From a virus, in the IMG/VR virus record IMGVR_UViG_3300028908_000024, positions 1-30,757 of that record: a stretch of 30,757 nucleotides of DNA. One strand, 5' to 3'. Both the position numbers and the translations under genes were made by a program. Shown here one piece after another: positions 10,126 through 30,042 of this stretch. The notes under the pieces were generated by a model. It was not told the origin of the DNA, searched no databases, and saw only the letters and a program-made list of their open reading frames with translations. Within the stretch, counting starts at the first letter, position 1, and each line of letters starts with the position of its first letter.

Positions 10126-10154
10126 TTGACACGGGGTCATAAGTTTGCTATACT
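10126..10154 (+). promoter_or_regulatory. Near-consensus early promoter (rightward)
   Basis: TTGACA (10126-10131), exactly 17 bases, TATACT (10149-10154). It drives the early operon starting at the ribbon-helix-helix gene and lies divergent to the XRE repressor. Confidence 0.85.
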
Positions 10155-10193
10155 GTGACCACAATACAATTTATTGCGTGAACAAAGGTCACA
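10135..10193. promoter_or_regulatory. Operator candidates: three GGTCA/TGACC half-sites
   Basis: GGTCAT at 10135, TGTGACC at 10154-10160 and GGTCACA at 10187-10193. The first two flank the -10 box as an inverted pair (GGTCA...TGACC). The last two form a perfect 7-bp inverted pair TGTGACC / GGTCACA up to the gene start. This arrangement suits binding by the XRE repressor or by the ribbon-helix-helix product of the first gene. Confidence 0.6.
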
Positions 10194-16575: not shown

Positions 16576-16817
16576 GTTGCTCGCCGAAGTCTCTGAAATG
16601 GAATCGGTATTCTGCCCTGCAATCTGGATGGCTGGCAGGTTATGGTGATTTGACTTATATCGTCGAGGAAACGCTGGGCCGATATCGGCTATCTGTGCAA
16701 TATGGTATCGGCGATCCGGGTTATCTGGGCTGGTTTAATAGCCTGGATGAGGCGAAGCGGCGGGCGCAATTCGATTTCGATCGCCAATTCGAGGAGATGC
16801 GTGATGATCAATCGTGA
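16572..16817 (+). CDS. Hypothetical small protein (81 aa)
   Basis: ATG at 16572 overlaps the previous TGA, with GGGAGG eight bases upstream. It reads SLKWNRYSALQSGWLAGYGD, then VEETLGRYRLSVQYG and LGWFNSLDEAKRRAQFDFDR. It is predicted beta-strand rich with a final helix, possibly a small two-layer fold. It overlaps the integrase start region. No family is named. Confidence 0.52.
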   Translation: MSCSPKSLKWNRYSALQSGWLAGYGDLTYIVEETLGRYRLSVQYGIGDPGYLGWFNSLDEAKRRAQFDFDRQFEEMRDDQS

Positions 16818-17829
16818 TAATTACATGGTGTTGCAGCAATATCTGAGATATCAATCTGAGGTGATGCTGCTTGCCGATGAAACGGTGTCACGCAAGGAGA
16901 ATCGCCTGCGGTATTTACTGATCTGGTCTGGAGAAATAGGTTTTGAAAAATGCCAGGCCATCCGGCCAGTTTTTCCGCGCTGGTTGGATGGTTCTGGCTT
17001 GCATGATATTGGACAGCGCCGGACATGCATGGATGTGCGGTCGTTTTTGATATGGCTTCGGAGACGCTGGCCGCGGCGATATCAATCACTGACTGATGAC
17101 TGGATTGAGACGATTCGTCCGGTGCGGGCGGTTATGCGGCCGCACGACGACCGTCAGATCGTGACCGTGGAGATGGTGCGGGCGCTGTTGGATGTGCCTG
17201 CCAATACGCTGGCAACACAGCGTGAACAGGCTGCTGCAGCAATGCTGTTTTTAAGCGGAATCCGGGCGCGGGCATTTGTGACACTGCCCATTCGGGCAGT
17301 TGATATGGATGAGTTGATCGTGCTACAGTATCCTGAGCTTGGTGTGGAAACAAAAACAAAAAAGGCCATCAAAACAGCATTATTGCCGATTGACGACCTG
17401 ATTGATGTTGTGCGGGCCTGGGATATGTTTGTGCGAAATGAGCTCCCCCCTCATGCATTATGGTGGCCAGTAATGCGTAGTCATAATGGCATTATCCGCC
17501 TGGCTAATGAATCACCAGGCGTACATCGTGATAGCGTATTGCGGCGGCGGTTGGCTGGTCTATTTCGTCGTGCGGGCCTGGCCCCATTGAGTCCGCATAA
17601 GTTTCGCCATGGTCACGCAGTCTATGCGCTCAAGCGGGCAAAGACGATGGCGGATCTGAAGGCGGTAAGCCAGAATTTGGGACATGCGAATATAGGTATC
17701 ACTGATGGCATTTATGCTGTGCTAGGAGATGCTGATGTGGCAGGGCGGATCGCCGGATTGGGCACCATGACAGAAGAAGATGATAAGCTCACCCGTCTCA
17801 TACAGATATTGGAGGATAGATTGCTATGA
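16804..17829 (+). CDS. int: Tyrosine recombinase / phage integrase (341 aa)
   Basis: ATG at 16804 has GAGGAG six bases upstream; a longer frame upstream overlaps the previous gene and is not used. Residues about 1-110 fit an N-terminal SAM-like core-binding domain. The catalytic domain shows Arg154 (SGIRARA), His265-x2-Arg268 (HKFRHGHA), His294 (NLGHANIG) and the nucleophile Tyr304 (IYAVLG), the R-H-R-H-Y set of the family. It would recombine the phage attachment site with the host copy. The attachment core is 49 bp downstream of its stop. The second Lys of the active site was not located with certainty. Confidence 0.9.
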   Translation: MINRDNYMVLQQYLRYQSEVMLLADETVSRKENRLRYLLIWSGEIGFEKCQAIRPVFPRWLDGSGLHDIGQRRTCMDVRSFLIWLRRRWPRRYQSLTDDWIETIRPVRAVMRPHDDRQIVTVEMVRALLDVPANTLATQREQAAAAMLFLSGIRARAFVTLPIRAVDMDELIVLQYPELGVETKTKKAIKTALLPIDDLIDVVRAWDMFVRNELPPHALWWPVMRSHNGIIRLANESPGVHRDSVLRRRLAGLFRRAGLAPLSPHKFRHGHAVYALKRAKTMADLKAVSQNLGHANIGITDGIYAVLGDADVAGRIAGLGTMTEEDDKLTRLIQILEDRLL

Positions 17830-18885: not shown

Positions 18886-19259
18886 TGGCGAAGGATGCTG
18901 GCCTGGCGCAAGCGGTAGCGCAGGGCATTCGTAATGCTCAGGGTCCCGGTTCGAATCCGGGGGCCAGCTCAAGGGCGTATGGCGAGAGCGCCCTAGCAGC
19001 CGGGGGTGTGAGTGGTGAGGCTGTGGGGTCCGACCGGCTGCGGCTGCGGGCCGGTGATGCGCCGGATGGGGGTGGTGTCCCCGGTGATGGCGCATTGCTG
19101 GCCGGTAGTTTGATGGAGGAGGATGACGGGAGGAGCCGCGGGGGCGAGGGGCCGGTGGTGGTGCGGTGCAGTGTGTGCGGGCGGCCTCTGCGGTCTGCGG
19201 AGAGTATTGCGCGGGGGATGGGGCGGGATTGCTGGCGGAAGAGCAGGGGGAAGAGATGA
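18882..19259 (+). CDS. ORF with C-terminal Cys-rich DUF6011-like domain; overlaps a tRNA gene (125 aa as drawn)
   Basis: ATG overlaps the terS stop (ATGA) and has GGAGG upstream. However, codons 6-30 (AQAVAQGIRNAQGPGSNPGA) are the tRNA-Thr gene read as protein. The only recognised part is the end: VVVRCSVCGRPLRSAESIAR, GMGRDCWRK, a C-x2-C...C motif with the 'CGRPL-SIA-G-G--C' pattern (DUF6011-like). GTG at 19008 or ATG at 19113 would give 83 or 48 residues without the tRNA. I suspect the tRNA entered the front of an older gene, or translation starts downstream. Confidence 0.55.
   Translation: MMAKDAGLAQAVAQGIRNAQGPGSNPGASSRAYGESALAAGGVSGEAVGSDRLRLRAGDAPDGGGVPGDGALLAGSLMEEDDGRSRGGEGPVVVRCSVCGRPLRSAESIARGMGRDCWRKSRGKR
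18897..18969 (+). tRNA. tRNA-Thr, anticodon CGT
   Basis: A complete cloverleaf folds with no mismatch: acceptor GCTGGCC / GGCCAGC; T8; D-stem GCGC / GCGC with loop AAGCGGTA (GG present); anticodon stem GGGCA / TGCTC, loop TTCGTAA; variable loop AGGGT; T-stem CCCGG / CCGGG with loop TTCGAAT. The anticodon CGT reads ACG (Thr), and G1-C72 plus C2-G71 fit Thr identity. The discriminator is T, and CCA is not encoded. It was missed by a simple ORF view because it lies within a frame. Confidence 0.93.
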
Positions 19260-19268
19260 GGGTGCGTG

Positions 19269-19481
19269 ATGTGTGATAATGAAAATGTTGTTGAGTCTGA
19301 TATATTGTTGGAAGAGTTCGCAGAGTCTATGCGGGCCATCAGAATTGCGTTATTGCCGGTGATTCAGGCCGCGGCAAAAATGGGGGAGTCGATGATTGCT
19401 CAATGGGAGGCATGGTATGATGGTTTGCCGGATGATGTGCGGGAGATAATTGATTCGTATGCCGATGAGGAGGATGGATGA
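19269..19481 (+). CDS. Hypothetical acidic small protein (70 aa)
   Basis: ATG at 19269, with GAGGG upstream. It begins MCDNENVVESDILLEEFAES and forms one long amphipathic helix (AIRIALLPVIQAAAKMGESM), then WYDGLPDDVREIIDSYADEE. It is strongly acidic. It overlaps the next small ORF (ATGA). No family recognised. Confidence 0.48.
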   Translation: MCDNENVVESDILLEEFAESMRAIRIALLPVIQAAAKMGESMIAQWEAWYDGLPDDVREIIDSYADEEDG

Positions 19482-19609
19482 TAATGAATGATTTTAATTA
19501 TGTTTTACATTTTCCTGACGGATCGACTATGAATTTGGATACATCGTATCGAGGAGCAATCATTTCGTCTGCGATTATTTTGTCAGAAAAGATAGGATTA
19601 GATGAGTGA
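19478..19609 (+). CDS. 43-aa ORF overlapping the large terminase start
   Basis: GAGGAGG (19467-19473) precedes ATG at 19478, which overlaps the previous stop. The peptide begins MIMNDFNYVLHFPDGSTMNL and ends SEKIGLDE; its TGA at 19607 lies inside the first codons of terL. The A/T-rich codons differ from the terminase. Overlaps at both ends and the good ribosome site support translation; function unknown. Confidence 0.5.
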   Translation: MIMNDFNYVLHFPDGSTMNLDTSYRGAIISSAIILSEKIGLDE

Positions 19610-21347
19610 GTATCGTTATCTGGCATATGCGGAGGGTGTGGTGGAGGGGCGGGTTCCGGCCGGGAGGTGGGTGCGGCTGGCGGCGACGCGGTTTTTGCGC
19701 GACCTGGAGGAGGGGCCGGGGCGGGGGCTGCGGTTCGATGAGGGGGCGGCGGCGCATGTGATTGATTTTTTCCGGGTGTTTCTGCGGCACTGGAAGGGAG
19801 AGTGGGCGGGGGAGCCGGTGATTCTGGAGCCGTGGCAGGAGTTTTTCGTGGCGAATCTGTTCGGGTGGATGATGGCGGCGGATGACGCATCCGCCACGGA
19901 GCGGCGGCGGTTTCGGGTGGGGTATGGGGAGGTGCCGCGGAAGAATGGGAAGACGCTGCTGGCGGCGGGAATCGGAGATTATCTGCTGGTGGCGGATGGG
20001 GAGCCGGGGGCGGAGGTGTATACGGCGGCGACGAAGCGGGATCAGGCGAGGATTGCGCACCGGGATGCGGTGATGATGGTGAAGCGGTCGCCAGCGCTGC
20101 GGAAGCTGGTGACGGTGCAGCGAGATAAGCTGATAGTGGCGGAGACGGGGAGCATTTTTGTGCCGCTGGGGCGGGATGCGGATACGATGGACGGCTTAAA
20201 TGTGCATGGGGCTATCATCGATGAGCTGCACGCTCACAAGAACCGGGATGTGTGGGATGTGCTGGAGACGGGGACGGGGGCCAGGCGGCAGCCGCTGATG
20301 CTGGGGATTACGACGGCTGGGTATAGCAGGCAGTCGCTATGCTGGGAGCTGCATGAGTATACGGAGAAGGTGCTGAGCGGGGTGGTCGAGGATGATTCGT
20401 GGTTCGGGATCATTTATGCGCTGGATGAGGATGATGTGGATAATTGGGAAGATGAGCGGCTGTGGTATGCGGCGAATCCGAACCTGGGGGTGAGTAAGAA
20501 GGTGGAGGATATGCGGCGGCTGGCGCTGAAGGCGCAAGAGCAACCGGCGGCGCTGAATGCGTTTTTGCGGCTGCATCTGAATGTGTGGACACATAGTGAG
20601 ACGCGGTGGATGCGGCCGGAGGTGTGGCGGGCATGCGGAGAGGCCCCCCTGGGTCCCCCCGCAGGCGGAGGGGGGTATGGGGCGGTGCGGGAGGAGTTGG
20701 AGGAGATGCTGGCGGGGCGGGGGTGTTATGCGGGGCTGGATCTGAGTACGACGACGGATATTACGTCTTTGTATTATTGCTTTCCGCCGCGGGAGGAAGG
20801 GGAGCGGTATGTGCTGCTGGGTCGGAATTTCATTCCGGAGGCGAATGTGCGCGAGCGGTCGCGGCGGGATCGGGCGCCGTATGAGGCGTGGATGCGGGCC
20901 GGGGTTGTGATTGCGACGCCGGGGGATTGGGTGGATTATGAGCGGGTGCTGGCGACGCTGATCGCTGACGCTGAGCGGTTCGATGTCCGGGAGGTGGCGT
21001 TCGACCCGTGGAATGCGGCGGCGATTGTGCAGCGGATGCAGGAGGCGGGGTTCGAGGTGGTGTCGTTTCGGCAGGGGTACCGGACGATGAGCCCGGCGAT
21101 GAAGGATTTCGAGAGGATGGCGCTGGGGCGGGAGCTTTATCATGGCGGGGACCCGGTGCTGGCCTGGGCGGTGGATAATGTGGTGGTGGAGATGGATGCG
21201 GCGGGGAATATCAAGCCGAGCAAAGCGAAGAGCTCGGAGCGGATTGATCCGTTTGTGGCGGCGCTGATGGCGACGGCTCGGGCGGTGTTGGGGGGTGGGA
21301 GCGGGGGGCGGAGCGTTTATGAGGAGCGGGGGATTTTGGTGTTATGA
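19602..21347 (+). CDS. terL: Large terminase subunit (581 aa)
   Basis: ATPase half: adenine/Q-motif region LEPWQEFFVANLFGW, Walker A-like GEVPRKNGKT (about residues 109-118) and Walker B GAIIDELHAH (about 203). Nuclease half: GLDLSTTTDITSLYY (first acidic strand, about 380), AFDPWNA (about 466) and SERIDPFVAALMA (about 546). These are typical of Terminase_1/YmfN-type enzymes that cut concatemers and pump DNA into the head. An odd in-frame stretch, APLGPPAGGGGYGA (about 348), comes from a C/G-tract palindrome between the two domains. There is no internal stop, and the length is normal. Confidence 0.93.
   Translation: MSEYRYLAYAEGVVEGRVPAGRWVRLAATRFLRDLEEGPGRGLRFDEGAAAHVIDFFRVFLRHWKGEWAGEPVILEPWQEFFVANLFGWMMAADDASATERRRFRVGYGEVPRKNGKTLLAAGIGDYLLVADGEPGAEVYTAATKRDQARIAHRDAVMMVKRSPALRKLVTVQRDKLIVAETGSIFVPLGRDADTMDGLNVHGAIIDELHAHKNRDVWDVLETGTGARRQPLMLGITTAGYSRQSLCWELHEYTEKVLSGVVEDDSWFGIIYALDEDDVDNWEDERLWYAANPNLGVSKKVEDMRRLALKAQEQPAALNAFLRLHLNVWTHSETRWMRPEVWRACGEAPLGPPAGGGGYGAVREELEEMLAGRGCYAGLDLSTTTDITSLYYCFPPREEGERYVLLGRNFIPEANVRERSRRDRAPYEAWMRAGVVIATPGDWVDYERVLATLIADAERFDVREVAFDPWNAAAIVQRMQEAGFEVVSFRQGYRTMSPAMKDFERMALGRELYHGGDPVLAWAVDNVVVEMDAAGNIKPSKAKSSERIDPFVAALMATARAVLGGGSGGRSVYEERGILVL
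20646..20677 (+). repeat. C/G-tract palindromic repeat inside terL
   Basis: CCCCCTGGGTCCCCCCGCAG followed by GCGGAGGGGGG: a CCCCCC-GCAGGC-GGAGGGGGG hairpin. It matches the intergenic copies at 28785 and 29272 and sits in the interdomain linker of the terminase. Confidence 0.78.
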
Positions 21348-21355
21348 TGGTTTGG

Positions 21356-21442
21356 AGTTCGAGGTTCAAAGTTGAAAGTTCAAAGTTGAAAGTTCGAGGT
21401 TCCAGGGTCCGATGTCGGAGACCAGAGGTCAGATGTCGGAGG
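21356..21442 (+). repeat. Heptamer tandem repeat plus 'AGATGTCGGAGG' repeat
   Basis: GTTCGAG/GTTCAAA/GTTGAAA heptamers (21356-21401), then a GTCCGATGTCGGAGACCAGA block and GGTCAGATGTCGGAGG. It sits between terL and a small membrane-protein gene. Confidence 0.8.
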
Positions 21443-21472
21443 GCTGAGGTTCATTTTTCACTGTGGAGGTAT

Positions 21473-21649
21473 ATGATGATTGATGTGTTTGATATGCTGG
21501 CGCTGGTGGGGCTGGCGCTGGTGGGGGCCGGGGTGTGGCTGTTGGCCGGGCCTGGCTGGACGCTGCTGGTGGTGGGTGGGATTGTGCTGGCGATGGGGAT
21601 GATCGGGGCGCTGCGTGGCGGGGCGCCGATTGATGACGAGGGAGAGTGA
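21473..21649 (+). CDS. Two-TM small membrane protein (58 aa)
   Basis: GGAGG (21465-21469) supports the ATG pair 21473/21476. A longer frame from 21344 (ATGA with terL) would translate the heptamer repeat and is less likely. Two helices are VFDMLALVGLALVGAGVWLL and WTLLVVGGIVLAMGMIGAL. It ends GGAPIDDEGE. Function unknown; possibly a superinfection or host-membrane factor. Confidence 0.58.
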   Translation: MMIDVFDMLALVGLALVGAGVWLLAGPGWTLLVVGGIVLAMGMIGALRGGAPIDDEGE

Positions 21650-21860
21650 TCGTTATGGGGCGGAGGGGCGGGCGTGGCGCTGCCGGAGTTGTGGTCAGGT
21701 TCTGGGGGTGGGTGTGGGGACGCGTCTGGTGTTGAGTGTGGGGGTGGCGGTTGAGGATCGGACGCGGTTGATGTGTCGCGCCTGTGGCAGATGGCAGACG
21801 TGGTATCCGCCTGGGGGGGAGGGGGAGCGGCGGATGCCGCTGTTTACGCTGGGGGATTGA
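21633..21860 (+). CDS. Com-like zinc-ribbon protein (75 aa)
   Basis: The ATG at 21633 is inside the end of the previous gene. The sequence reads WRCRSCGQVLGVGVGTRLVL, then VEDRTRLMCRACGRWQTWYP: two C-x2-C pairs about 30 residues apart. This matches the small zinc-ribbon layout of Com-type phage proteins, known in Mu as an mRNA-binding activator. It is the last rightward gene before the leftward cassette. Confidence 0.55.
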   Translation: MTRESDRYGAEGRAWRCRSCGQVLGVGVGTRLVLSVGVAVEDRTRLMCRACGRWQTWYPPGGEGERRMPLFTLGD

Positions 21861-21871
21861 GGGATGTAAAG

Positions 21872-21896
21872 CAAAAAGCCCGCCTGGTGGCGGGCT
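21872..21896 (-). terminator. Strong intrinsic terminator, leftward
   Basis: Perfect 8-bp stem AGCCCGCC / GGCGGGCT with loop (TGGT on the + strand), followed on the minus strand by TTTTTGC. It lies 20 bases after the stop of the leftward gene at 21916. Confidence 0.88.
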
Positions 21897-21915
21897 GGAT
21901 TGTGTGAGATAGGTG

Positions 21916-22341
21916 TCAGTCAGCGAGGAGATCGGTATGTGGTGGCTGTTCACCCTGTGCGACGCGTATCCACCAACGCTCCGCCCCATCGATAATCGTC
22001 AGATAGGTTATGTAGGCTGCGTTTTGGATTTTCAGCATTAGCTCGCTGGGATCCACGCCCCATTTTGCATCCAGGTCATCTAGTTCGATGGCGTCCAAGA
22101 CGCCATATGCAAACATGTTGACCGTCTCCGGATAATGGCTTACGCCGTTGGTTGCATCGAGGATGAGCGCACATTCGTTTTCCGTCAGAATGTTTCTCAG
22201 TCCCCTTCTCTCCCGTCTTAGCGCCTCAAAATAGCGCGCTAGTTGGCTATTTACGGTTGCTGACTGGTTTCCCCTGTTTCTTCGTTTGACTTCTGCTGCC
22301 GTTTTTGGCAGCAGGGAAATGGACATTTTTGATACTGGCAT
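21916..22341 (-). CDS. RHH-N-terminus small protein of the leftward cassette (141 aa)
   Basis: AAGGAG lies six bases before ATG at 22341. The N-terminus (SKMSISLLPKTAAEVKRRN, GNQSATVNSQLARYFEAL) fits a ribbon-helix-helix DNA-binding element (about residues 4-42). The rest is helical: ENECALILDATNGVSHYPET, then DLDAKWGVDPSELMLK and AERWWIRVA. It could bind the palindromic operator upstream of the cassette, as RHH proteins often do. It resembles small bacterial proteins often found outside phage structural regions. It is the second gene in its own transcript. Confidence 0.62.
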   Translation of the reverse strand: MPVSKMSISLLPKTAAEVKRRNRGNQSATVNSQLARYFEALRRERRGLRNILTENECALILDATNGVSHYPETVNMFAYGVLDAIELDDLDAKWGVDPSELMLKIQNAAYITYLTIIDGAERWWIRVAQGEQPPHTDLLAD

Positions 22342-22458
22342 GATTTTCTCCTTGTCCTTTTGTTGGGCTTTTCAGTGAGTTGGTTTATCAGAGCTGACAA
22401 GCTGCCCAGATTTTGAGATTGGCTCCGGGCGGGCCAGGGCTGGGTTAGAGAGGGGGGG

Positions 22459-22764
22459 TCAGGCGTCAATTATCTCGACCTCCGGGAAGGCTTCTGCGTA
22501 GGGGACGGTGTGCTCTGGCAATTGCTCTTCGTACAAAGCACGAGCCTCTTCCGGGCTCACGGGCGTGAGGGTGTCTCGTTCGCCTTGCCAGAATGATCCG
22601 CGCACGACGAAGTATCTTCCGTTGTGCGTGCGATAGAGCCAGGCGTTGCGCCCACTGCGTTCCATGTTGTGCCCGTCCCAGTAGACGTTATCTGCTAGGA
22701 GCGTTGCGTTCTCCGTGTTGTAGCGATGCCCTTCGATTACTCTTTTCATAATGATGCGTTTCAT
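22459..22764 (-). CDS. First gene of the leftward cassette, 'YNTENA' family small protein (101 aa)
   Basis: AGGAG precedes ATG at 22764. The protein reads KRIIMKRVIEGHRYNTENAT, LLADNVYWDGHNMERSGRNA, WLYRTHNGRYFVVRGSFWQ, then SPEEARALYEEQLPEHTV and an acidic end. The 'G-xYNTE-A' start with 'LYRT-G-YF' is a known pattern of small proteins of unknown function in phages and bacteria. It is expressed from the near-consensus promoter at 22841. Biological role not known. Confidence 0.62.
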   Translation of the reverse strand: MKRIIMKRVIEGHRYNTENATLLADNVYWDGHNMERSGRNAWLYRTHNGRYFVVRGSFWQGERDTLTPVSPEEARALYEEQLPEHTVPYAEAFPEVEIIDA

Positions 22765-22802
22765 GAGTTTCTCCTGTTTGAGAGATGGATTAGTGTTTGT
22801 TA

Positions 22803-22820
22803 GGTATACCCTAGTATACC
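22803..22820. promoter_or_regulatory. 18-bp palindromic operator
   Basis: GGTATAC CCTA GTATACC, a perfect 7-bp inverted repeat overlapping the -10 box of the leftward promoter. Its place suggests repressor binding, for example by the RHH protein of the cassette. Confidence 0.75.
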
Positions 22821-22841
22821 ATAGCGCACCATATTTGTCAA
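22813..22841 (-). promoter_or_regulatory. Near-consensus leftward promoter of the moron cassette
   Basis: On the minus strand: TTGACA (22841-22836), 17 bases, TATACT (22818-22813). It drives the two leftward genes ending at 21916. Confidence 0.85.
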
Positions 22842-22863
22842 GCCCAAAATGGCCGTTTCGGGG

Positions 22864-22891
22864 ACGAATTTGCAAAATTCGTGAAATTCGT
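22864..22891. repeat. ACGAATTT/AAATTCGT inverted and direct repeat
   Basis: ACGAATTT (22864-22871) and AAATTCGT (22875-22882) form a perfect 8-bp inverted repeat; AAATTCGT recurs directly at 22884-22891. It lies between two divergent promoters. Confidence 0.7.
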
Positions 22892-22924
22892 TTTGTTTTC
22901 AGGGTTCAGGAGGGTGGGCGGGGG

Positions 22925-22952
22925 TTGACACGAAATTATCTTCTGTTAAAAT
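22925..22952 (+). promoter_or_regulatory. Rightward promoter before the portal operon
   Basis: TTGACA (22925-22930), 16 bases, TAAAAT (22947-22952). Its transcript would run into the head genes through a leader with a strong terminator. Confidence 0.7.
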
Positions 22953-22957
22953 GGTGG

Positions 22958-23122
22958 TGAGAGGGCTCCGGGCGGTCCCCCCCACCCCTCCCCTCCGTCC
23001 CGCCGTCCGGGCCTCTCGTCCCCCCTCCTATTCCGGGAGTGTGTGGGGAATAGGTATGGCGGATGTGATGTCCTTCATGCGAGAGTTTGCCGCCTCGCGC
23101 CATTGCTGGCGCGAGGTTTTTT
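22958..23122 (+). ncRNA. Leader RNA between promoter and terminator (possible attenuator or sRNA)
   Basis: About 160 bases lie between the promoter at 22925 and the terminator at 23122. The stretch 22975-23040 is strongly C-rich (CCCCCCCACCCCTCCCCTCC). No protein with a ribosome site fits. It could end as a short RNA or be read through by an anti-termination event. Unproven. Confidence 0.4.
23093..23122 (+). terminator. Strong intrinsic terminator before the portal gene
   Basis: Perfect 10-bp stem CCTCGCGCCA / TGGCGCGAGG, loop TTGC, then six T. It lies 36 bases upstream of the portal ATG, inside the transcript of the 22925 promoter. Confidence 0.92.
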
Positions 23123-23157
23123 GCAGGGGGTGATATGGCCGGGAGGGTTTGGTTGTT

Positions 23158-25218
23158 ATGGGTTTGCTGACGATGGTTTTGGGCGGGAGGGGTCTGGCCA
23201 GGGCCAGTTCGACGCTGTCGTATCCGAATGCGGAGCTGGTTGCGGCTCTGCGCGGGTCTGTTTCGACGCATGCGGGTGTTAGTGTGACGCCACAGAGTGC
23301 GATGGGGTATAGTGCTGTGGTGAGTGCGGTGCGGGTGTTGAGCGAGAGTGTGGCGCAGTTGCCGCTGATTTTGTATGAGCGGGTTGGTGATGATGGGCGG
23401 CGGCGGGCGCCTGAGCATCCTATTTATGGTCTGCTGCATGATGCTCCGAATTTTGTGCAGGATTCGTTTATGTTCTGGGATCTTGTGCTACAGCATCTGA
23501 TTTTCTGGGGTAATTTTTACGCGGAGATGGAGGTGACGGCCGGGGGGGAAATTACGGCGTTGTGGCCGTTGAATCCGCGGTATATGGATGTGGTTGTGGC
23601 GGATGGGCATGTGCGGTATGTGTACAGGCAGTTTGGCCGGGATGAGGTGTGGCCTGTTTTTCATGTGCGGGGGATGGCGAAGGATGCTGTGAAGGGTCAG
23701 AGTTTGCTGAGTGCGGCGCGGCAGGCGATTGGGCTCGGTATGGCGGCTGAGGAGTTCGGGGCGCGGTTGTTTGAGAATGGTGCGGTGCCTGGGGTTGCGC
23801 TATCGCATCCTGGTCTGCTGAGTGAGGAGGCGCGAGATCATTTGAAGCGGAGCTGGGAGGATGCGTATAGCGGGTTGAGCAATGCACATCGGGTGGCTGT
23901 GCTGGAGGAGGGTCTGACGGTTGAGCGGATCGGTATTCCTCCGGATGATGCGCAGTTTCTGGAGACGCGTAAGTTTCAGGTGACGGAGATCGCACGGATT
24001 TTCCGTGTGCCGCCTCATATGCTGGCGGATCTGGAACGAGCGACGTTTTCGAATATAGAGCATCAGTCGCTTGAGTTTGTGGTGCATAGTCTGGGGCCGT
24101 GGCTGAAGCGCATTGAAACGGCCATCCGGGTGCAGTTGCTGGACAGCAGGGAGCGGGACAGGTTTTATGCTGAGTTTCTGGTGGATGGTTTGCTGCGAGG
24201 TGATATCAAAGCGCGATATGCCGCGTATGCGACGGGGCGGCAATGGGGCTGGCTGAGCAGGAATGATGTACGACGTTTTGAGAATATGAATCCGGTGCCG
24301 GGTGGTGATGATTATCTGACGCCGATGAATATGATGGTGATTGGGGAGGCGGCGCTGCTGGATGGGCAGCGGGAGAATGGCGGTGAGAGGTCGGAGGTGA
24401 GCGGATGGGGAGCGAGGGAGCGAGAGGGTGAAAGGGGGGAGGCGTTGCCTCGGGCGGCGGTGGTGCGGCATCGGCTGGCGGGGCGGTATGTGCGGGTGAT
24501 TGAGGATGTGGCTCAGAGGCTGGTGAATCGTGAGGTGAATGATGTGGGGAATGCGGCGCGGCGGTTGCTGGCTTCGGGGAAGTCGCCGCGGCATGAGGCC
24601 GGGCGAGGTGTGGCGGAGGAGCAGGATTTTGTGGATTGGCTGCGTGATTTTTATGATCGGGATGGGTTTGCGGCTGTGATCAGGGAGTATGTGTCGCCTG
24701 TGTTTGTGAGTTATCTAGAGTTAGTACTGGATGCGGTATCTGAGGAGACGGGCGAAGATGTGGGGCAGGGGGCTCTGGATGACTGGATGGACCGGTATCT
24801 GAGGAGCCGGGCGAATATATGGTGCAAGGAGCATCGGCTGGCGCTGGGGCGGGCGGTTGAGGAGGCGCAGGGGGATGGTTCGCCGGATGCGGTTCTGGCG
24901 GCTGTGGAGGATCGGCTGGCGCAGATGAAGGAGCGGGATGCGGGGCAATGGGGATGGGATCAGGCGCACCGGTTCAATAATGCGGCTGCTGTGACTGCGT
25001 ATGGCATGCTGGCCCGGACGCTGAAGCGGTGGGTTGCGTTCGGGGATAGTTGTCCGTATTGCAGTCAGATGGATGGCCATGTGGTGGGGATTGAGATGAC
25101 GTTTTTGGGGCCTGGGGAGAGTCTGGAGGATGGCAAGGGTGGGGTGTATACGACGCGGTCGCATGTGATGCATGCGCCTCTGCATGATGGTTGCGATTGT
25201 ATGGTGATCAGTGCATGA
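23158..25218 (+). CDS. Portal protein fused to MuF-like minor head domain (686 aa)
   Basis: ATG at 23158 has GGGAGGG ten bases upstream. Residues about 45-410 are an HK97-type portal: YSAVVSAVRVLSESVAQLPL, LIFWGNFYAEM, EITALWPLNPRYMDVV, VFHVRG, LFENGAVPGVAL, FLETRKFQVTEIARIFRVPP and ATFSNIEHQSLEFV. A charged linker (about 410-440) leads to a C-terminal region (about 440-686) ending in the MuF-type zinc-like motif GDSCPYCSQMDGHVVGIEM...HAPLHDGCDCMV. Portals form the dodecameric head gate; MuF domains are minor head proteins, usually separate genes. The fusion is known in some phages. Confidence 0.9.
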   Translation: MGLLTMVLGGRGLARASSTLSYPNAELVAALRGSVSTHAGVSVTPQSAMGYSAVVSAVRVLSESVAQLPLILYERVGDDGRRRAPEHPIYGLLHDAPNFVQDSFMFWDLVLQHLIFWGNFYAEMEVTAGGEITALWPLNPRYMDVVVADGHVRYVYRQFGRDEVWPVFHVRGMAKDAVKGQSLLSAARQAIGLGMAAEEFGARLFENGAVPGVALSHPGLLSEEARDHLKRSWEDAYSGLSNAHRVAVLEEGLTVERIGIPPDDAQFLETRKFQVTEIARIFRVPPHMLADLERATFSNIEHQSLEFVVHSLGPWLKRIETAIRVQLLDSRERDRFYAEFLVDGLLRGDIKARYAAYATGRQWGWLSRNDVRRFENMNPVPGGDDYLTPMNMMVIGEAALLDGQRENGGERSEVSGWGAREREGERGEALPRAAVVRHRLAGRYVRVIEDVAQRLVNREVNDVGNAARRLLASGKSPRHEAGRGVAEEQDFVDWLRDFYDRDGFAAVIREYVSPVFVSYLELVLDAVSEETGEDVGQGALDDWMDRYLRSRANIWCKEHRLALGRAVEEAQGDGSPDAVLAAVEDRLAQMKERDAGQWGWDQAHRFNNAAAVTAYGMLARTLKRWVAFGDSCPYCSQMDGHVVGIEMTFLGPGESLEDGKGGVYTTRSHVMHAPLHDGCDCMVISA

Positions 25219-25294
25219 GAGTTCGAGGTTCTAAGTTCGATGTTCAAGGTTCCAAGTTCAAGGTTCAAGGTCTGAAGTTCGAGGTTCTAAGTTC
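25219..25294 (+). repeat. Heptamer tandem repeat between portal and protease
   Basis: Units GTTCGAG GTTCTAA GTTCGAT GTTCAAG GTTCCAA GTTCAAG GTTCAAG follow each other. The array fills the whole gap and provides only a weak GAGG before the protease ATG. Confidence 0.88.
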
Positions 25295-25296
25295 TT

Positions 25297-25944
25297 ATGG
25301 ATGATTTGGTTGATAAGGTGGTGACGGGGGATGTTGAGCGGCGTGTGTGGCTGGTGGAGGGTCTGGAGGTGCGGGCTGCGCATGAGGAGGGGCCGCGGCG
25401 GATTGTGGGGTATGCTGCTGTGTATGGGCGGCGGAGCAATCCTATTTTCGGGATGTTTGTGGAGGTGATCGAGCCGGGGGCGTTTGCGGGGGTGCTGGAT
25501 GATGATGTGCGGGCGTTGTGGAATCATGATCCGAATTATGTGCTGGGGCGGACGGAGGCGGGGACGCTGATGCTGGAGGAGGATGAGCTGGGGCTGCGGG
25601 TGGCGATTACGCCTCCGGATGCGCAGTGGGCGCGGGATTTGCTTGTGAGTATTGAGCGGGGGGATGTGACGCAGATGAGTTTTGCATGGCGTTCGGATGA
25701 GGACTGGTGGGATGAGGCGCAGGGGGATGGTCTGCCGGTGCGGCATGTGACGCGGATCGAGCGGCTGTATGATGTGAGTCCGGTGACGTTTCCGGCTTAT
25801 GAGCAGACGACGGTGGCGGTGCGGAGTATGGCTGAAAAGACGCTGCGGGCGCGGCGCGATGATAATCAATCCGATAGCGGGGCCGCGGGCGCGGTGGACG
25901 TGATGCGGAGAAAACTTTCTTTACTTGATCTGGAGGTTGTGTGA
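25297..25944 (+). CDS. HK97-family prohead protease (215 aa)
   Basis: The pattern RRIVGYAAVYGRRSNPIFG, VIEPGAFAGVL, RALWNHDPNYVLGR, LRVAITPPDAQWARDL and GDVTQMSFAWR is the U35/S78 family. The catalytic pair is His in WNHD (about residue 77) and Ser in QMSF (about residue 128). VTRIERLYDVSPVTFPAYEQT closes the domain. It processes the capsid delta domain during head maturation. The start lies in a heptamer repeat without a clear ribosome site, so translation may be coupled or weak. It overlaps nothing. Confidence 0.92.
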   Translation: MDDLVDKVVTGDVERRVWLVEGLEVRAAHEEGPRRIVGYAAVYGRRSNPIFGMFVEVIEPGAFAGVLDDDVRALWNHDPNYVLGRTEAGTLMLEEDELGLRVAITPPDAQWARDLLVSIERGDVTQMSFAWRSDEDWWDEAQGDGLPVRHVTRIERLYDVSPVTFPAYEQTTVAVRSMAEKTLRARRDDNQSDSGAAGAVDVMRRKLSLLDLEVV

Positions 25945-25945
25945 G

Positions 25946-27193
25946 ATGGATGCATTCATTGAGCTGATGCGGAAGCGTCAGGAGAAGCTGGCTGCTGCCC
26001 AGGGGGTTCTGGATGGGGCTGATGGCCGTGCGTTGACTGAGGATGAGCGCGAGCGTTATGATGAGCTGGAGGCTGAGATCCGGGAGATGAATGAGACGCT
26101 GGAGCGGAAGCAGCGGCTGGCTCTGCTGCTGGGGAATGAGGAGCGCCACCAGGCTGGCGGCGTGACGCCCCGGTCGCTGATCGGAATGAATGATGATGAG
26201 GTGCGGTCTTACCGGCTGGTGCGTGCGATTCGGGCGTCTGCTGATGCGGCCCGCGGTGTGCGGAATGCCTGGGATGGCGCTGAGCTGGAGCTGGAGGCGA
26301 GCCGGGCCGTGGCTGAGCGGCTGGGCCGGGAGCCTGAGGGATTTTTCGTTCCGTTCGAGGTGCAGGCTCGTGATCTGGTGGTGGGGACGGATAGTGCGGG
26401 CGGTTATACGGTGGCGACGGAGCTGCTGGGTCTGATTGAGCTGCTGCGGAAGAAGATGGTGGCCCGTGCTGCTGGTGCGACGGTGCTGGCTGGTCTGGTG
26501 GGGGATGTGGCGATTCCTCGGCAGACGGGCGGTGCGACGGCGTACTGGGTGGCTGAGAGTGGATCGCCGACGGAGAGTCAGGCGACGTTCGATCAGGTGG
26601 CTATGAGTCCCAATACGGTGGGGGCGTTCACGGATATCAGCCGCAAGTTGCTGAAGCAGTCGAGTCTGGATGTGGAGGCATTTGTGCGGAATGATCTGGC
26701 GACGGCGCTGGCTCTGGAGATCGACCGGGTGGCGCTGCATGGCAGCGGTACGGCGCCGGAGCCGACGGGGATTGCGAATACGACGGGCATCAATTCGGTG
26801 ACGCTGGCGACGGCGAATTCGCCGACGTGGGCCGAGGTGGTGAAGATGGAGACGGAGGTGGCTGCTGATAATGCTGATCTGGGCCGGCTGGCGTATCTGG
26901 TGAATGCGGCGCTGCGGGGCTGGCTGAAGACGACGCCGAAGGTGAGCGGCACGGGGCTGTTTATGTGGGAAGGGAATGAGGTGAATGGCTACCGGGCGCT
27001 GGCCAGTAATCAGGCGAGCACGATGTTCTTCGGCAATTGGGCGGATCTGATTATCGGCATGTGGGGCGGCCTGGATATTCTGGTGGACCCGTATACGGGC
27101 AGCACGAGCGGCACGGTGCGGGTGGTGGCGCTGCAGGATGTGGATATTGCTGTGCGCCACGCCGAGAGTTTCTGCATTACTGCGAATCCTTAG
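25946..27193 (+). CDS. Major capsid protein, HK97 fold (415 aa)
   Basis: ATG at 25946, with GGAGG nine bases upstream. Residues about 1-105 form a charged coiled-coil delta domain (RYDELEAEIREMNETLERKQ) that acts as scaffold and is cleaved. The shell domain follows: VVGTDSAGGYTVATELLGLI, GDVAIPRQTGGATAYWVAES, MSPNTVGAFTDISRKLLKQS, ALEIDRVALHGSGTAPEPTG and the C-terminal IIGMWGGLDILVDPYT with RVVALQDVDIAVRHAESF. All are HK97-family signatures. The protease is immediately upstream. Confidence 0.94.
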   Translation: MDAFIELMRKRQEKLAAAQGVLDGADGRALTEDERERYDELEAEIREMNETLERKQRLALLLGNEERHQAGGVTPRSLIGMNDDEVRSYRLVRAIRASADAARGVRNAWDGAELELEASRAVAERLGREPEGFFVPFEVQARDLVVGTDSAGGYTVATELLGLIELLRKKMVARAAGATVLAGLVGDVAIPRQTGGATAYWVAESGSPTESQATFDQVAMSPNTVGAFTDISRKLLKQSSLDVEAFVRNDLATALALEIDRVALHGSGTAPEPTGIANTTGINSVTLATANSPTWAEVVKMETEVAADNADLGRLAYLVNAALRGWLKTTPKVSGTGLFMWEGNEVNGYRALASNQASTMFFGNWADLIIGMWGGLDILVDPYTGSTSGTVRVVALQDVDIAVRHAESFCITANP

Positions 27194-27204
27194 GGTGAGT
27201 TGTG

Positions 27205-27453
27205 ATGACGAGGCTGACGAGGCTGTTGATTCTGCGTGATACGGTGGCTGGCGGACGCGTTGTGAAAGCGGGGGATGTGATCGAAGCATCCCCCGCGGAT
27301 GCGGCGGTGCTGCTGAGGCTGGGGAAGGCTGTGCCGGCGGATGATGGGGTTGAGCGGGCGGTTGACGGGCCTGCGCGGCGGGCTGTCGGGGCGGCGCAGG
27401 CGTCTACCAGGGCGAAGGCGCCGAGGAAGCGGAAGCAGCGGAGGAAGATGTGA
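27205..27453 (+). CDS. Small capsid-associated protein (82 aa)
   Basis: ATG at 27205 with GGGTGAG upstream. Residues about 1-45 read TRLLILRDTVAGGRVVKAGD, VIEASPADAAVLLRLGKAVP, a short beta fold found between capsid and connector genes in many siphophages. The tail is very basic (RAKAPRKRKQRRKM). It overlaps the connector gene by GTGA. Possibly a head decoration or completion protein; the exact role is unknown. Confidence 0.6.
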   Translation: MTRLTRLLILRDTVAGGRVVKAGDVIEASPADAAVLLRLGKAVPADDGVERAVDGPARRAVGAAQASTRAKAPRKRKQRRKM

Positions 27454-28046
27454 GTGCGCTGGAGGTGGTGACGGCGGCCAGTAAGCCGGTGCTGAGTACG
27501 GATGAGGCGAAGCTGCATTTGCGTGTTGATGTGAGCGATGATGATATGCTGATCGATGCGTTTGTGAGTGCGGCGACGGCTCATGCGGAGCAGTATATGC
27601 GGCGGGCGTTGATCTCGCGGACGTATCGGTATTGGCTGGATGGCTGGCCATCGGATGGGGTGATCTGGCTGCCGATGCCTCCGCTGCGGTCGGTGAGCAG
27701 CATTACGTATTATGATGAGGATGATGCGGATTATACGCTGGCGACGAGTGAGTATTATGTGGATGCTGTTTCGATGCCAGGGCGTGTGATGTTGCGTCGG
27801 GATGGGAGCTGGCCGAGTGTGACGCTGCGGGTGGCGAATGGGGTGGCGGTGCTGTTTGAAGCGGGTTACGGGACGGCTGCCAGTGATGTGCCAGAGGATG
27901 TGCGGAATGCGATCCGCCTGCTTGTTGGTCATTTTTATGAGAATCGGGAGGCGGTTGTGAGTACGGGGGCGGTGCCGAAGGAGTTGCCCTTTGCTGTGCG
28001 AGCGCTGCTGGATCCGTATCGGATGAGCATGGTGGGAGGGTTGTGA
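27450..28046 (+). CDS. Head-tail connector protein, gp6-like (198 aa)
   Basis: The GTG overlaps the previous stop. The N-terminus (VLSTDEAKLHLRVDVSDDD, MLIDAFVSAATAHAEQYMRR) is the signature of HK97 gp6-like connectors. A beta-rich middle (YRYWLDGWPSDGVIWLPMPP) and C-terminal helix (RNAIRLLVGHFYENREAV) complete the fold. It joins portal to tail. Confidence 0.88.
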   Translation: MSALEVVTAASKPVLSTDEAKLHLRVDVSDDDMLIDAFVSAATAHAEQYMRRALISRTYRYWLDGWPSDGVIWLPMPPLRSVSSITYYDEDDADYTLATSEYYVDAVSMPGRVMLRRDGSWPSVTLRVANGVAVLFEAGYGTAASDVPEDVRNAIRLLVGHFYENREAVVSTGAVPKELPFAVRALLDPYRMSMVGGL

Positions 28047-28378
28047 TGCAGGCAGGCGCATTGCGGCACCGTGTGACGATTCAGGCGGCGACGGAGACTC
28101 AGAATGATTTCGGCGAGGTGACGAAGACATGGTCGGATCTGGCGACGGTGTGGGCGGCTGTGGAGGCGCTGTCGGGCCGGGAGTATTTTGAGGCCAGGCA
28201 GTTGCAGCGCTCGACGCTGACGCGGATGATCATTCGCTGGCGGGACGATGTGACGGCGGGCCACCGGGTGCGGTGGACGGACACGATGGGCACGACGCAT
28301 ACGTATGACATCGAGAGCGTCATCGCAGACCGGACGCATCGGGCGCAGTTGACGCTAATGTGTGTGGAGGTTACGTAG
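28046..28378 (+). CDS. Head closure protein, SPP1 gp16 / HK97 gp7-like type (110 aa)
   Basis: ATG at 28046 overlaps the previous stop, with GGGAGGG upstream. GALRHRVTIQAATETQNDFG, VTKTWSDLATVWAAVEALSG and REYFEARQLQRSTLTRMIIR form the family pattern (SPP1 gp16-like stopper). It seals the portal after packaging and forms the interface with the tail. Confidence 0.88.
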   Translation: MQAGALRHRVTIQAATETQNDFGEVTKTWSDLATVWAAVEALSGREYFEARQLQRSTLTRMIIRWRDDVTAGHRVRWTDTMGTTHTYDIESVIADRTHRAQLTLMCVEVT

Positions 28379-28379
28379 T

Positions 28380-28784
28380 GTGGCTGTGATTGAGGATGCG
28401 TTGGTGGCGCTGCTGAGGGCTGATGCGACGGTCTCGGGCCTGGTTGGCAGTCGGATTTATCCGATTGTGGCGCCAGCGGAGGCGACGCTGCCTGCGTTGG
28501 TTTATCAGCGAATCAGCGGGCCGCGGGTGATGACGCATGACGGACCCAGCGGCCTGGCGCATCCCCGGTTTCAGTTTCGGGCGGTGGCGCGGCATTACAG
28601 TGAGGCCAAGGGCCTGGTCAATGCGCTGCGGTCGGCGCTGGATGGGTATCATGGCACGACCAGCGGCGTGACGATTGATGAGATCGCTATCGACAATGAG
28701 ATCGATGCGTTTTACCCGTCGGATGATGAGGCGGCGGATAGTTATGAGATATTGGTCGATTTTATCGTCTGGCACCACGAGTAG
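28380..28784 (+). CDS. Tail completion protein, DUF3168-type (134 aa)
   Basis: GTG at 28380 is chosen since GGAGG (28366-28370) lies nine bases upstream. The motif AVIEDALVALLRADATVSGL, GSRIYPIVAPAEATLPALVY and FRAVARHYSEAKGLVNALRS matches the DUF3168 / tail terminator family (SPP1 gp17, lambda gpU-like). It caps the tail tube at the head end. Confidence 0.86.
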   Translation: MAVIEDALVALLRADATVSGLVGSRIYPIVAPAEATLPALVYQRISGPRVMTHDGPSGLAHPRFQFRAVARHYSEAKGLVNALRSALDGYHGTTSGVTIDEIAIDNEIDAFYPSDDEAADSYEILVDFIVWHHE

Positions 28785-28816
28785 CCCCCCCAGCAGGCGG
28801 GGGGAGGCAGTAGTTA
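28785..28816 (+). repeat. C/G-tract palindrome, intergenic copy 1
   Basis: CCCCCCCAGCAGGCGGGGGG followed by AGGCAGTAGTTAA. Six-base C/G stem with AGCAGGC loop, just upstream of the tail tube gene. Confidence 0.78.
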
Positions 28817-28856
28817 ATAATCATGGACGGAGGGATCAGAAAAGGAGTAGTTTATT

Positions 28857-29261
28857 ATGAGTGTGACAAGCGGTTTTGGAACGACAATTGGCGTGAGTGA
28901 TGATGGCGCCACGTACACGCTGCTGGCGGAGATCATCGACACCATCGACGGGCCTGAACGCCGGGCGGATGCGATCGAGACGACGAGCCACGACAGCACC
29001 AATGGCATCCGCACGTATATCGGCGGGTTGAAGGACAACGGCGAGCTGGGATTCAAACTGAACTGGGACCCTGGCAGTACGACGCACACGAAGCTAGCTG
29101 CGGCACGCGGCGCACTGAAACACTGGCAGATCACGTATCCTGGTGGTGACACGTCCAGTTTCGAGGGTGTTCTGACGAGCTTTAAGCCATCGGCGCCGAT
29201 CGATGACCGGATGACGGCTGAGGTGACGGTGCAGGTGAGCGGCGCCATCACGGACGCGTAG
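28857..29261 (+). CDS. Major tail tube protein (134 aa)
   Basis: AAAGGAG lies 8-9 bases before ATG. SGFGTTIGVSDDGATYTLLA, EIIDTIDGPERRADAIETTS, RTYIGGLKDNGELGFKLNW and GVLTSFKPSAP give the two-sheet fold of siphophage tail tube proteins. Hexamers of it form the tail tube. It is flanked on both sides by C/G palindromes, unusual for this operon. Confidence 0.88.
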   Translation: MSVTSGFGTTIGVSDDGATYTLLAEIIDTIDGPERRADAIETTSHDSTNGIRTYIGGLKDNGELGFKLNWDPGSTTHTKLAAARGALKHWQITYPGGDTSSFEGVLTSFKPSAPIDDRMTAEVTVQVSGAITDA

Positions 29262-29271
29262 AGCGTCCACC

Positions 29272-29298
29272 GGGCCCCCGCCCGCAGGCGGTGGGAGA
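29272..29298 (+). repeat. C/G-tract palindrome, intergenic copy 2
   Basis: CCCCCGCCCGCAGGCGGTGG followed by GAGACAGTAAT; stem CCGCC/GGCGG with loop CGCA. The 3' part (GCAGGCGG-GGGAG-CAGTA) is shared with copy 1. Confidence 0.76.
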
Positions 29299-29301
29299 CA
29301 G

Positions 29302-29336
29302 TAATCAGTTATCAGTAATCAGTTATCAGTAATCAG
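29302..29336 (+). repeat. Heptamer tandem repeat (CAGTAAT/CAGTTAT)
   Basis: Alternating units CAGTAAT CAGTTAT CAGTAAT CAGTTAT CAGTAAT, starting just after the palindrome, with clean 7-bp period. Similar short heptamer arrays are known from other bacterial genomes. Confidence 0.9.
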
Positions 29337-29351
29337 CAGTGAGGAGTTGTT

Positions 29352-29762
29352 ATGACTAAGCGGTTTTTGACGCGTGATTTGATTTTGGCCGCGGATGATC
29401 TCAAGACGGAGGAGGTGGAGGTACCGGAGTGGGGAGGCGTGGTGCTGGTGCGGGAGATGACGGGGATGGAGCGTGATCAGTATGAGCGGCGGATGGTGCA
29501 GGCCAAGGGCAACGAGCCGGGCATCAATCTGGACGGGCTGGTGAATATACGGGCCTGGGTGGCGGCGGCGTGCATGGTGGACGGCAGCGGCAAGCGGCTG
29601 TTTACGGAGCGGGATGTGATGTCTCTGGGCCGGAAGAGCGCTGCGGCCCTGGGCCGGGTCTATGATGTGGCGACGCGTCTGAGTGGCCTGATGAGGGGGG
29701 ACCTGGATGAGCTGGAAAAAAACTCCGAAAACATCCCGAACGGAGGTTCTATTTCCGACTAG
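29352..29762 (+). CDS. Tail assembly chaperone, gpG-like (136 aa, zero frame)
   Basis: Ribosome site GAGGAG precedes the ATG. The protein begins MTKRFLTRDLILAADDLKTE and includes EMTGMERDQYERRMVQAKG and a helical middle. Its second last stretch (ELEKNSENIP) contains the slippery heptamer A AAA AAC. It is the short form of the G/GT pair that helps wrap the tape measure during tail assembly. TAG at 29760 ends the zero frame. Confidence 0.85.
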   Translation: MTKRFLTRDLILAADDLKTEEVEVPEWGGVVLVREMTGMERDQYERRMVQAKGNEPGINLDGLVNIRAWVAAACMVDGSGKRLFTERDVMSLGRKSAAALGRVYDVATRLSGLMRGDLDELEKNSENIPNGGSISD

Positions 29763-30040
29763 CGCTGGCGCTGGGGTATCCCCACCCCCGCCATCTGCTG
29801 GCAGCGTTGACGAGCCGGGAGATGGCGGAGTGGCTGGCATATGCGAGCCTGGAGCCGTTTGGCGAGGACCGGGCGGACCTGCGGGCTGGAATTATTGCCA
29901 GTACGGTGGCGAATGTGAATCGTGGCAGGAGCCAGCGTTCTCTGACGCCTCAGGATTTTATGCCGGATTTCGATTATCGTCCTCCGAGTAGGGATGAGGT
30001 GGCGGATAAAGTGCGGCGGATGTTGCAATCTCATGGCTAA
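29352..30040 (+). CDS. Tail assembly chaperone GT-type fusion by -1 frameshift (about 229 aa)
   Basis: Reading the zero frame to AAC (residue 124), then slipping back one base at 29723, gives LRKHPERRFYFRLALALGYP, HPRHLLAALTSREMAEWLAY, ASLEPFGEDRADLRAG, then STVANVNRGRS and a 'DFMPDF' segment. This is a typical GT extension (PRHLLAALTS--MAEW---SLEPFGE-R-D---A). The downstream frame is open from before the slip site to 30040 and has no good ribosome site of its own. So a programmed -1 frameshift produces the long form, as in lambda G/GT. Confidence 0.87.
29717..29723 (+). other. Programmed -1 frameshift site A AAA AAC
   Basis: The heptamer lies in zero-frame codons GAA AAA AAC (29715-29723), the ideal X XXY YYZ layout. 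Slippage moves to the frame that reads through 30040. Confidence 0.88.
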
Positions 30041-30042
30041 TT

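What the first reader, a model, noticed from the sequence alone, without database searches (positions are those of the whole stretch)
21872..22841. Self-regulated leftward 'moron' between the terminase and portal genes
Two leftward genes with a near-consensus promoter (TTGACA-17-TATACT), an 18-bp perfect palindromic operator over the -10 box and a strong terminator sit between terL and portal. The plus strand here is not G-rich, unlike all around, which points to recent acquisition. One product has an RHH-like N-terminus and could be the autoregulator. This is the layout of lysogenic-conversion cassettes (morons): expressed in the lysogen, unknown function, possible defence or superinfection role.
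Basis: partly seen in the sequence, partly recalled or inferred. Interest (0 to 1): 0.72.

Follow-up and report, generated by a model that had tools for sequence, protein, structure and literature searches.

The report
Self-contained cargo cassette in phage
A phage genome carries a small, recently acquired, self-switched pair of backward-facing genes wedged between two of its packaging genes, at a spot where two other phages that were checked carry toxin-antitoxin pairs; what the two genes do is still unknown.

Summary
Two leftward genes are real: B (22459-22764, 101 aa) and A (21916-22341, 141 aa). They share an 11/12 promoter and a strong terminator, and both have Shine-Dalgarno sites. B belongs to an uncharacterised family (phrog_38278). 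A has one full-length plasmid relative found directly.

The 'perfect 18-bp palindrome' is really two GTATAC boxes 10 bp apart with an asymmetric centre. A stronger operator candidate was missed: three AAATTCGT copies (22864-22891), found nowhere else in the window (0 of 3000 shuffles). The cassette extends to 23117: a second, rightward 11/12 promoter makes a ~160-nt RNA that ends at a strong terminator, so both transcripts stop at the cassette's edges.

Recent acquisition is supported. Resident leftward genes carry the phage's strand bias; A and B do not. None of 7 phylum relatives has leftward genes at this junction. Two of 19 named phages carry toxin-antitoxin pairs there, one with the same leftward layout.

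Moron-type cargo is well supported. A toxin-antitoxin role is only suggested: A and B never co-occur elsewhere, and the RHH fold of A is unproven. B often lies beside integrases, which gives a rival lysogeny-control reading. Defence is untested.

The parts
22459..22764 (-). Gene B, 101 aa, promoter-proximal; small beta-rich protein of an uncharacterised family (phrog_38278) with invariant W, G, WQGE and A positions
   Evidence: ORF with AGGAG Shine-Dalgarno; phrog_38278 1.8e-10; 21-row family alignment; AlphaFold model mean pLDDT 83
21916..22341 (-). Gene A, 141 aa, promoter-distal; possible RHH N-terminus plus a helical C-terminal part; candidate autoregulator
   Evidence: ORF with AGGAG Shine-Dalgarno; full-length relative on a Pseudomonas luteola plasmid, 36%, 5e-6; RHH fold inconclusive; poor structure model, pLDDT 44
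22813..22841 (-). Leftward promoter TTGACA-17-TATACT with extended TG
   Evidence: 11 of 12; three 11/12 sites in the whole window
22803..22820 (.). Operator-like repeat GGTATAC-CCTA-GTATACC: two GTATAC boxes 10 bp apart, one on the -10, the other near the start site
   Evidence: Shuffle counts 42/2000 (inverted) and 14/2000 (direct); no copy in the other loci held
22864..22891 (.). Second operator-like cluster: three copies of AAATTCGT (22864 -, 22875 +, 22884 +) between the two divergent promoters
   Evidence: 0 of 3000 local shuffles; only three copies in the window, all here
22925..22952 (+). Rightward promoter TTGACA-16-TAAAAT with extended TG
   Evidence: 11 of 12
22959..23117 (+). Predicted ~160-nt structured RNA with a C-rich loop, ending at its own terminator; function unknown
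   Evidence: Promoter and terminator scan; fold of 22958-23125 z -2.06, 8 of 200 shuffles as good; no Rfam match at gathering score
23092..23117 (+). Rightward intrinsic terminator, 11-pair stem, upstream of portal
   Evidence: the most G-C pairs of the 10 terminator-like sites in 19001-30757
21877..21896 (-). Leftward intrinsic terminator after gene A
   Evidence: second most G-C pairs of the same 10 sites

Best explanation
The stretch 21877-23117 is a recently acquired, self-contained accessory (moron-type) cassette at the terL-portal junction. A central control region fires two divergent transcripts, each stopped by its own terminator at the cassette's edge: leftward B-A, and rightward a ~160-nt RNA. 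Most likely A is a DNA-binding autorepressor that acts on the GTATAC boxes and/or the AAATTCGT cluster, keeping B-A at a low steady level in the prophage independently of the phage's own repressor. B is then the effector or a partner of A. Layout and position match toxin-antitoxin cargo that other phages with related TerL carry at the same junction, so an addiction- or defence-type role is the best single guess. Shown: genes, promoters, repeats, terminators, foreign composition, absence in relatives, precedent at the site. Inferred: autoregulation, prophage expression, the effector role of B.
For: Own promoter, terminator and Shine-Dalgarno sites. A and B plus-strand skew -0.03 and +0.02, against +0.38 and +0.40 for the resident leftward genes 8842-9294 and 9465-10067, whose third positions are strongly ameliorated. 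No leftward gene at this junction in 7 of 7 informative relatives. B is scattered: 4 of 301 genomes of the L005 phylum, 6 of 398 of the L014 phylum. Precedent: Monoglobales phage CHVD 5762 has two leftward genes at the same junction (Gp49/HigB-like toxin 1.9e-20 first, HTH_3 antitoxin 8.3e-14 second), with an 11/12 promoter, a 7-bp-arm inverted repeat over it and a terminator behind it. Streptococcus phage phiSC070807 has a RelB-ParE pair there with an 11/12 promoter and a terminator. The early promoter 10126-10154 shares neither repeat.
Against: A and B do not co-occur elsewhere: no A-like protein among 2849 ORFs of 30 B loci, and no B near 3 A loci, unlike obligate toxin-antitoxin partners. 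The A-B gap is 117 nt. B has no toxin match (Pfam, NCBIfam, PADLOC) and no Foldseek PDB hit at E 0.001. The RHH fold of A is not established. Toxin-antitoxin pairs occur in only 2 of 19 named phages looked at, and leftward genes in 1 of 19. No expression data.
Confidence: 0.55

Rival explanations
1. Lysogeny or integration-control module: B is a partner of site-specific recombination or lysogeny control, and B-A is such a control pair that has moved away from the integrase.
For: A tyrosine recombinase lies within 400 nt and on the same strand as B in 7 of 23 B loci (random placement mean 0.93; 0 of 20000 reach 7), and in 2 of 7 loci of a later sample. A HTH_17 excisionase-like gene is next to B in L010, L015, L016 and L146; a serine recombinase lies 792 nt from B in L020.
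Against: In the window B is 4.6 kb from the integrase (16702-17829) and points the other way. About two thirds of B loci have no recombinase next to B. Cargo genes also settle beside integrases, so adjacency does not prove function.
Confidence: 0.2
2. Neutral or self-serving hitchhiker: a transient insert with its own promoter and no function for phage or host.
For: No known family for A; scattered distribution of B; foreign composition.
Against: Intact frames with good ribosome sites, paired operator-like repeats and terminators, and strongly conserved residues in B suggest selection.
Confidence: 0.15
3. Late-gene control region: the rightward promoter, ~160-nt leader and strong terminator just upstream of portal form a pR'-6S-tR'-like antitermination switch for the head and tail genes, with B-A as local regulators.
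For: Promoter 22925-22952, leader and terminator 23092-23117 lie directly upstream of portal, and the scan lists no promoter between 23117 and 23149.
Against: Relatives run terL to portal directly, so such a switch is not general. No antiterminator was identified; the lambda comparison is from recall.
Confidence: 0.1

Closest known systems
Leftward HigBA-type toxin-antitoxin pair between terL and portal of Monoglobales phage CHVD 5762 (PV036456)
   Same: Related TerL (42%), same junction, two small leftward genes, DNA-binding protein encoded second, 11/12 promoter with an inverted repeat on it, terminator behind the second gene
   Different: Genes are unrelated by family scan: Gp49 toxin and HTH_3 antitoxin there; B and A match neither family. 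No rightward RNA unit was looked for there
RelB-ParE pair between terL and portal of Streptococcus phage phiSC070807 (KT336321)
   Same: Same junction, own 11/12 promoter and terminator, two small genes
   Different: Rightward, known toxin and antitoxin families (annotated Phd/Doc in the record, RelB/ParE by Pfam)
phrog_38278
   Same: B matches it at 1.8e-10 over profile positions 94-175
   Different: Function unknown; covers only part of that profile
Prophage cargo hotspots with antiviral systems in P2-like phages and P4 satellites (PMC9122126)
   Same: Small variable loci between conserved phage genes (passages read)
   Different: There between other genes, with tested defence systems; here no defence match

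Membership tests
Moron / lysogenic-conversion cassette | Own promoter and terminator, transcribed independently of the late operon | tested here: met
   (sequence signals only)
Moron / lysogenic-conversion cassette | Absent at the same place in relatives | tested here: met
   0 of 7 informative relatives have leftward genes there; 1 of 19 named phages, with other genes
Moron / lysogenic-conversion cassette | Base composition unlike the host phage | tested here: met
Moron / lysogenic-conversion cassette | Expressed in the lysogen and of use to lysogen or phage | not testable with these tools
   No transcriptome or phenotype at hand
Type II toxin-antitoxin module | Two small co-directional genes under one autoregulated promoter | tested here: inconclusive
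   Two genes, one promoter, operator-like repeats; autoregulation not shown
Type II toxin-antitoxin module | Toxin of a known or demonstrable toxin family | tested here: inconclusive
   No match of A or B to a toxin family in Pfam, NCBIfam or PADLOC; no significant PDB fold match for B
Type II toxin-antitoxin module | Partners occur together across genomes | tested here: not met
   No A among 2849 ORFs of 30 B loci; no B near 3 A loci
Type II toxin-antitoxin module | Genes overlap or lie a few bases apart | tested here: not met
   117 nt between B and A
RHH (MetJ/Arc) DNA-binding proteins, for A | RHH profile match or fold | tested here: inconclusive
   No Pfam hit; none with a 16-sequence RHH_1 profile; hhalign 4%, 2 of 200 column shuffles as good; structure model too poor
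phrog_38278, for B | Significant profile match | tested here: met
   1.8e-10; 4.6e-12 in a second run
Integration/excision module gene, for B in the window | Next to the integrase | tested here: not met
   Integrase 16702-17829 is 4.6 kb away; met in 7 of 23 and 2 of 7 other B loci
WGR domain, for B | Profile or fold match | tested here: inconclusive
   VIA-align Z 4.0-4.7 to PARP WGR domains, below the noise level stated by the tool; hhalign 0.3%, 22 of 150 shuffles as good

The most novel reading that the evidence does not exclude
B ('WQGE' protein) founds an uncharacterised family of mobile-element control or effector proteins that couple to different DNA-binding partners: an RHH-like protein in trans here, possibly RHH-like tails in cis in L020 and L022, HTH_17 proteins elsewhere. 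The window's cassette would be a new two-protein-plus-small-RNA module with divergent, jointly controlled transcripts, acting in lysogeny control, addiction or superinfection immunity.
Probability: 0.15. Interest if true: 0.7.

Novelty: new variant of a known kind. Interest (0 to 1): 0.42.

Why it matters
It adds the terL-portal junction to the places in tailed phages worth searching for compact cargo: of 19 named phages looked at, two hold toxin-antitoxin pairs there and one a TerB_N-domain protein. It also gives the B family its first functional lead here, co-oriented adjacency to integrases across bacterial elements, and a small cassette that can be tested directly by EMSA and expression in a laboratory strain.

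Tried and rejected
Rejected: perfect 18-bp palindrome. B as a WGR-like nucleic-acid-binding domain. Control of B-A by the phage's own repressor through a shared operator: the early control region shares only words of up to 8 bases with the cassette's, the longest being TTGACACG around the -35. Known Rfam RNA for the rightward transcript.

Led nowhere: no tblastn match of A or B in the phage collection, nor of B in the plasmid collection; viral-contig scans for A and for portal found no relative; the TerL scan found one distant relative; DNA search of the whole cassette in the phage collection found nothing; the structure model of A is too poor to use; Foldseek PDB for B gave nothing at E 0.001, and BFVD gave an uncharacterised phage protein at 9e-3. 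VIA-align listed no toxin family for B at a Z above the noise.

Literature: four searches turned up no listing about terL-portal cargo that I recognised from titles and abstract starts; I opened only passages of PMC9122126. Searches were for background. A missing report in print is therefore not claimed beyond these searches. Recalled, from no call: the lambda pR'-6S-tR' comparison, RHH operator habits, and an impression that proteins like the C-terminal half of A are common unannotated ORFs on integrative elements.

Rows dropped before counts: of the B loci, L018 (same contig as L002), L027-L032, L033-L036 and L125-L129 were left out as repeats or short copies of loci already counted, and L130/L131 were replaced by L150/L151; L010 and L011 come from one genome, and L015 and L016 are near-identical, yet each was counted. 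L053 and L054 are weaker family members and were kept. Of the 13 TerL loci examined by ORF list, 7 were informative; the rest ended at the contig edge or showed no recognisable portal.

Full report
WHAT IS THERE. The window is a 30,757-base virus record. Between terL (19602-21347) and portal (23149-25218) lie two leftward genes: B (22459-22764, 101 aa) first, A (21916-22341, 141 aa) second, 117 nt apart. Each has an AGGAG Shine-Dalgarno. The promoter TTGACA-17-TATACT with extended TG matches 11 of 12 positions; the whole window has three such sites, at 10126 (+), 22841 (-) and 22925 (+), so two of the three face away from each other in this control region. A strong terminator follows A.

CORRECTIONS AND ADDITIONS. 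The claimed 18-bp perfect palindrome has perfect 7-bp arms and an asymmetric centre; it is equally two GTATAC boxes 10 bp apart, one on the -10 and one near the start site. Chance gives such an inverted repeat in 42 of 2000 promoter shuffles and such a direct repeat in 14 of 2000. A better candidate operator was missed: three copies of AAATTCGT at 22864 (-), 22875 (+) and 22884 (+), spaced 11 and 9 bp, found nowhere else in the window; 0 of 3000 shuffles of 22766-22960 give any 8-mer three times within 45 bp. A second promoter, 22925-22952 (+), should make a ~160-nt structured RNA (z -2.06) that ends at the terminator 23092-23117. The two cassette-edge terminators have the most G-C pairs of the 10 terminator-like sites in 19001-30757. 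The unit is therefore about 21877-23117.

RECENT ARRIVAL. The phage's plus strand is G-rich whichever way genes point: the resident leftward genes 8842-9294 and 9465-10067 have plus-strand skews of 0.384 and 0.403, with coding-strand third-position skews of -0.78 and -0.64. A and B have -0.028 and 0.018, with -0.04 and -0.28. The cassette's skew, 0.063, is at the 1.4th percentile of 2785 other windows of equal size. So A and B have not been ameliorated to this strand. One rightward gene (2482-3033, 0.014) is as low, so low skew alone is not unique.

RELATIVES AT THE JUNCTION. TerL relatives were found in 12 of 301 genomes of the phylum of G001, the genome of L005, titled Caldilineales; portal relatives in 21 of 301. 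Of 13 TerL loci examined (12 regions plus viral locus L003), seven have terL and portal located together. L003, L058 and G237 run terL to portal almost directly. L060 and L064 have one small membrane-type ORF between. L065 has one same-strand ORF. G192, the closest relative by TerL (46%), has about 4.9 kb that I read as rightward genes, although a long antisense open frame is present there. None of the seven has a leftward pair. I then looked at 19 named phages: 3 of the 15 rows listed and 16 of the 60, the latter picked for varied hosts before seeing their content. One of 19 has leftward genes there: Monoglobales phage CHVD 5762, with a Gp49-type toxin and an HTH_3 antitoxin, an 11/12 promoter carrying a 7-bp-arm inverted repeat, and a terminator behind the pair. 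A second, phiSC070807, has a rightward pair annotated Phd/Doc that Pfam calls RelB and ParE, again with an 11/12 promoter and a terminator. A third, IMGVR 517045, has a 508-aa TerB_N protein. The other 16 have nothing, or one to four small rightward ORFs, in the gap.

PROTEIN B. B matches phrog_38278 (1.8e-10) and nothing of note in Pfam, NCBIfam or PADLOC (one Pfam hit at E 0.14, below its cut-off). A 21-row alignment shows invariant W29, G38, W59-Q60-G61-E62 and A74. The AlphaFold model (pLDDT 83) is mostly beta with one main helix; no significant PDB match. B is sparse: 4 of 301 genomes of the L005 phylum and 6 of 398 of the L014 phylum (Paenibacillus by record title). Its neighbourhood is telling: in 7 of 23 loci a tyrosine recombinase lies within 400 nt on the same strand (L005, L011, L012, L013, L017, L052, L054), against 0.93 expected for random placement and 0 of 20,000 placements reaching 7. 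In a later sample of 7 loci, 2 show it (L146, L149). Excisionase-like HTH_17 genes adjoin B in L010, L015, L016 and L146. L020 and L022 appear to fuse B to RHH-like tails, but only by eye and by sub-threshold Pfam hits (DUF2239 5.2e-4; DUF7557 6.7e-5).

PROTEIN A. No Pfam match. Relatives: one broken ORF in 1 of 400 genomes, a full-length protein on a Pseudomonas luteola plasmid, and through it one on a Chromobacterium plasmid that also carries terminase genes on the other strand. The RHH reading rests on the pattern of the window, Pseudomonas and Chromobacterium proteins and on a weak profile-profile match in the right register (probability 4%; 2 of 200 column shuffles as good); a direct profile search found nothing.

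HOW IT PROBABLY WORKS. Steps shown: an insulated divergent cassette with operator-like repeats, foreign composition and no counterpart in relatives. Steps inferred: A represses the shared control region, the cassette is active in the prophage because it does not share the repeats of the phage's early promoter, and B is effector or partner. The layout match to CHVD 5762 favours an addiction- or defence-type module. Against that, A and B do not occur together anywhere else (0 A-like among 2849 ORFs of 30 B loci, 0 B near 3 A loci), and B lacks any toxin signature. The integrase association of B supports a lysogeny-control rival.

VERDICT. A real moron-type cassette, extended and corrected; precise function open. 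Moderately interesting; a new variant of a known kind.

Noticed in passing
window 18897-18970: A complete tRNA-Thr gene (anticodon CGT) lies between the small terminase ORF and terL, inside an ORF on the same strand.
   Followed up: no
window 10126-10190: The early promoter TTGACA-17-TATACT is framed by GGTCA/TGACC-type repeats, likely operators of the leftward HTH repressor 9465-10067.
   Followed up: partly
window 10766-10920: A 21-bp tandem repeat encodes repeated VTDPPGS units in ORF 10450-10956; a 12-bp repeat lies at 11383-11447.
   Followed up: no
window 29301-29336: Three copies of CTGATTAC at 14-bp spacing in the gap between two tail-region ORFs.
   Followed up: no
window 1-828 and 30267-30757: Open frames run off both ends of the record, with head genes towards its right end and tail genes at its left; this looks like a circularly permuted genome cut inside one gene.
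   Followed up: no
L099 4108-4748: Pair annotated as Phd antitoxin and Doc toxin in phage phiSC070807 matches RelB and ParE in Pfam: a probable misannotation.
   Followed up: yes
L074 3001-4129 and L073 2917-4027: In two plasmids the relative of A overlaps a downstream gene of about 240 aa by 17 nt; the two downstream proteins look alike and basic, and no Pfam family passed its cut-off for either.
   Followed up: partly
window 22975-23010: The rightward RNA has a ~25-nt C-rich loop that could pair with G-rich ribosome sites of this G-rich phage.
   Followed up: no
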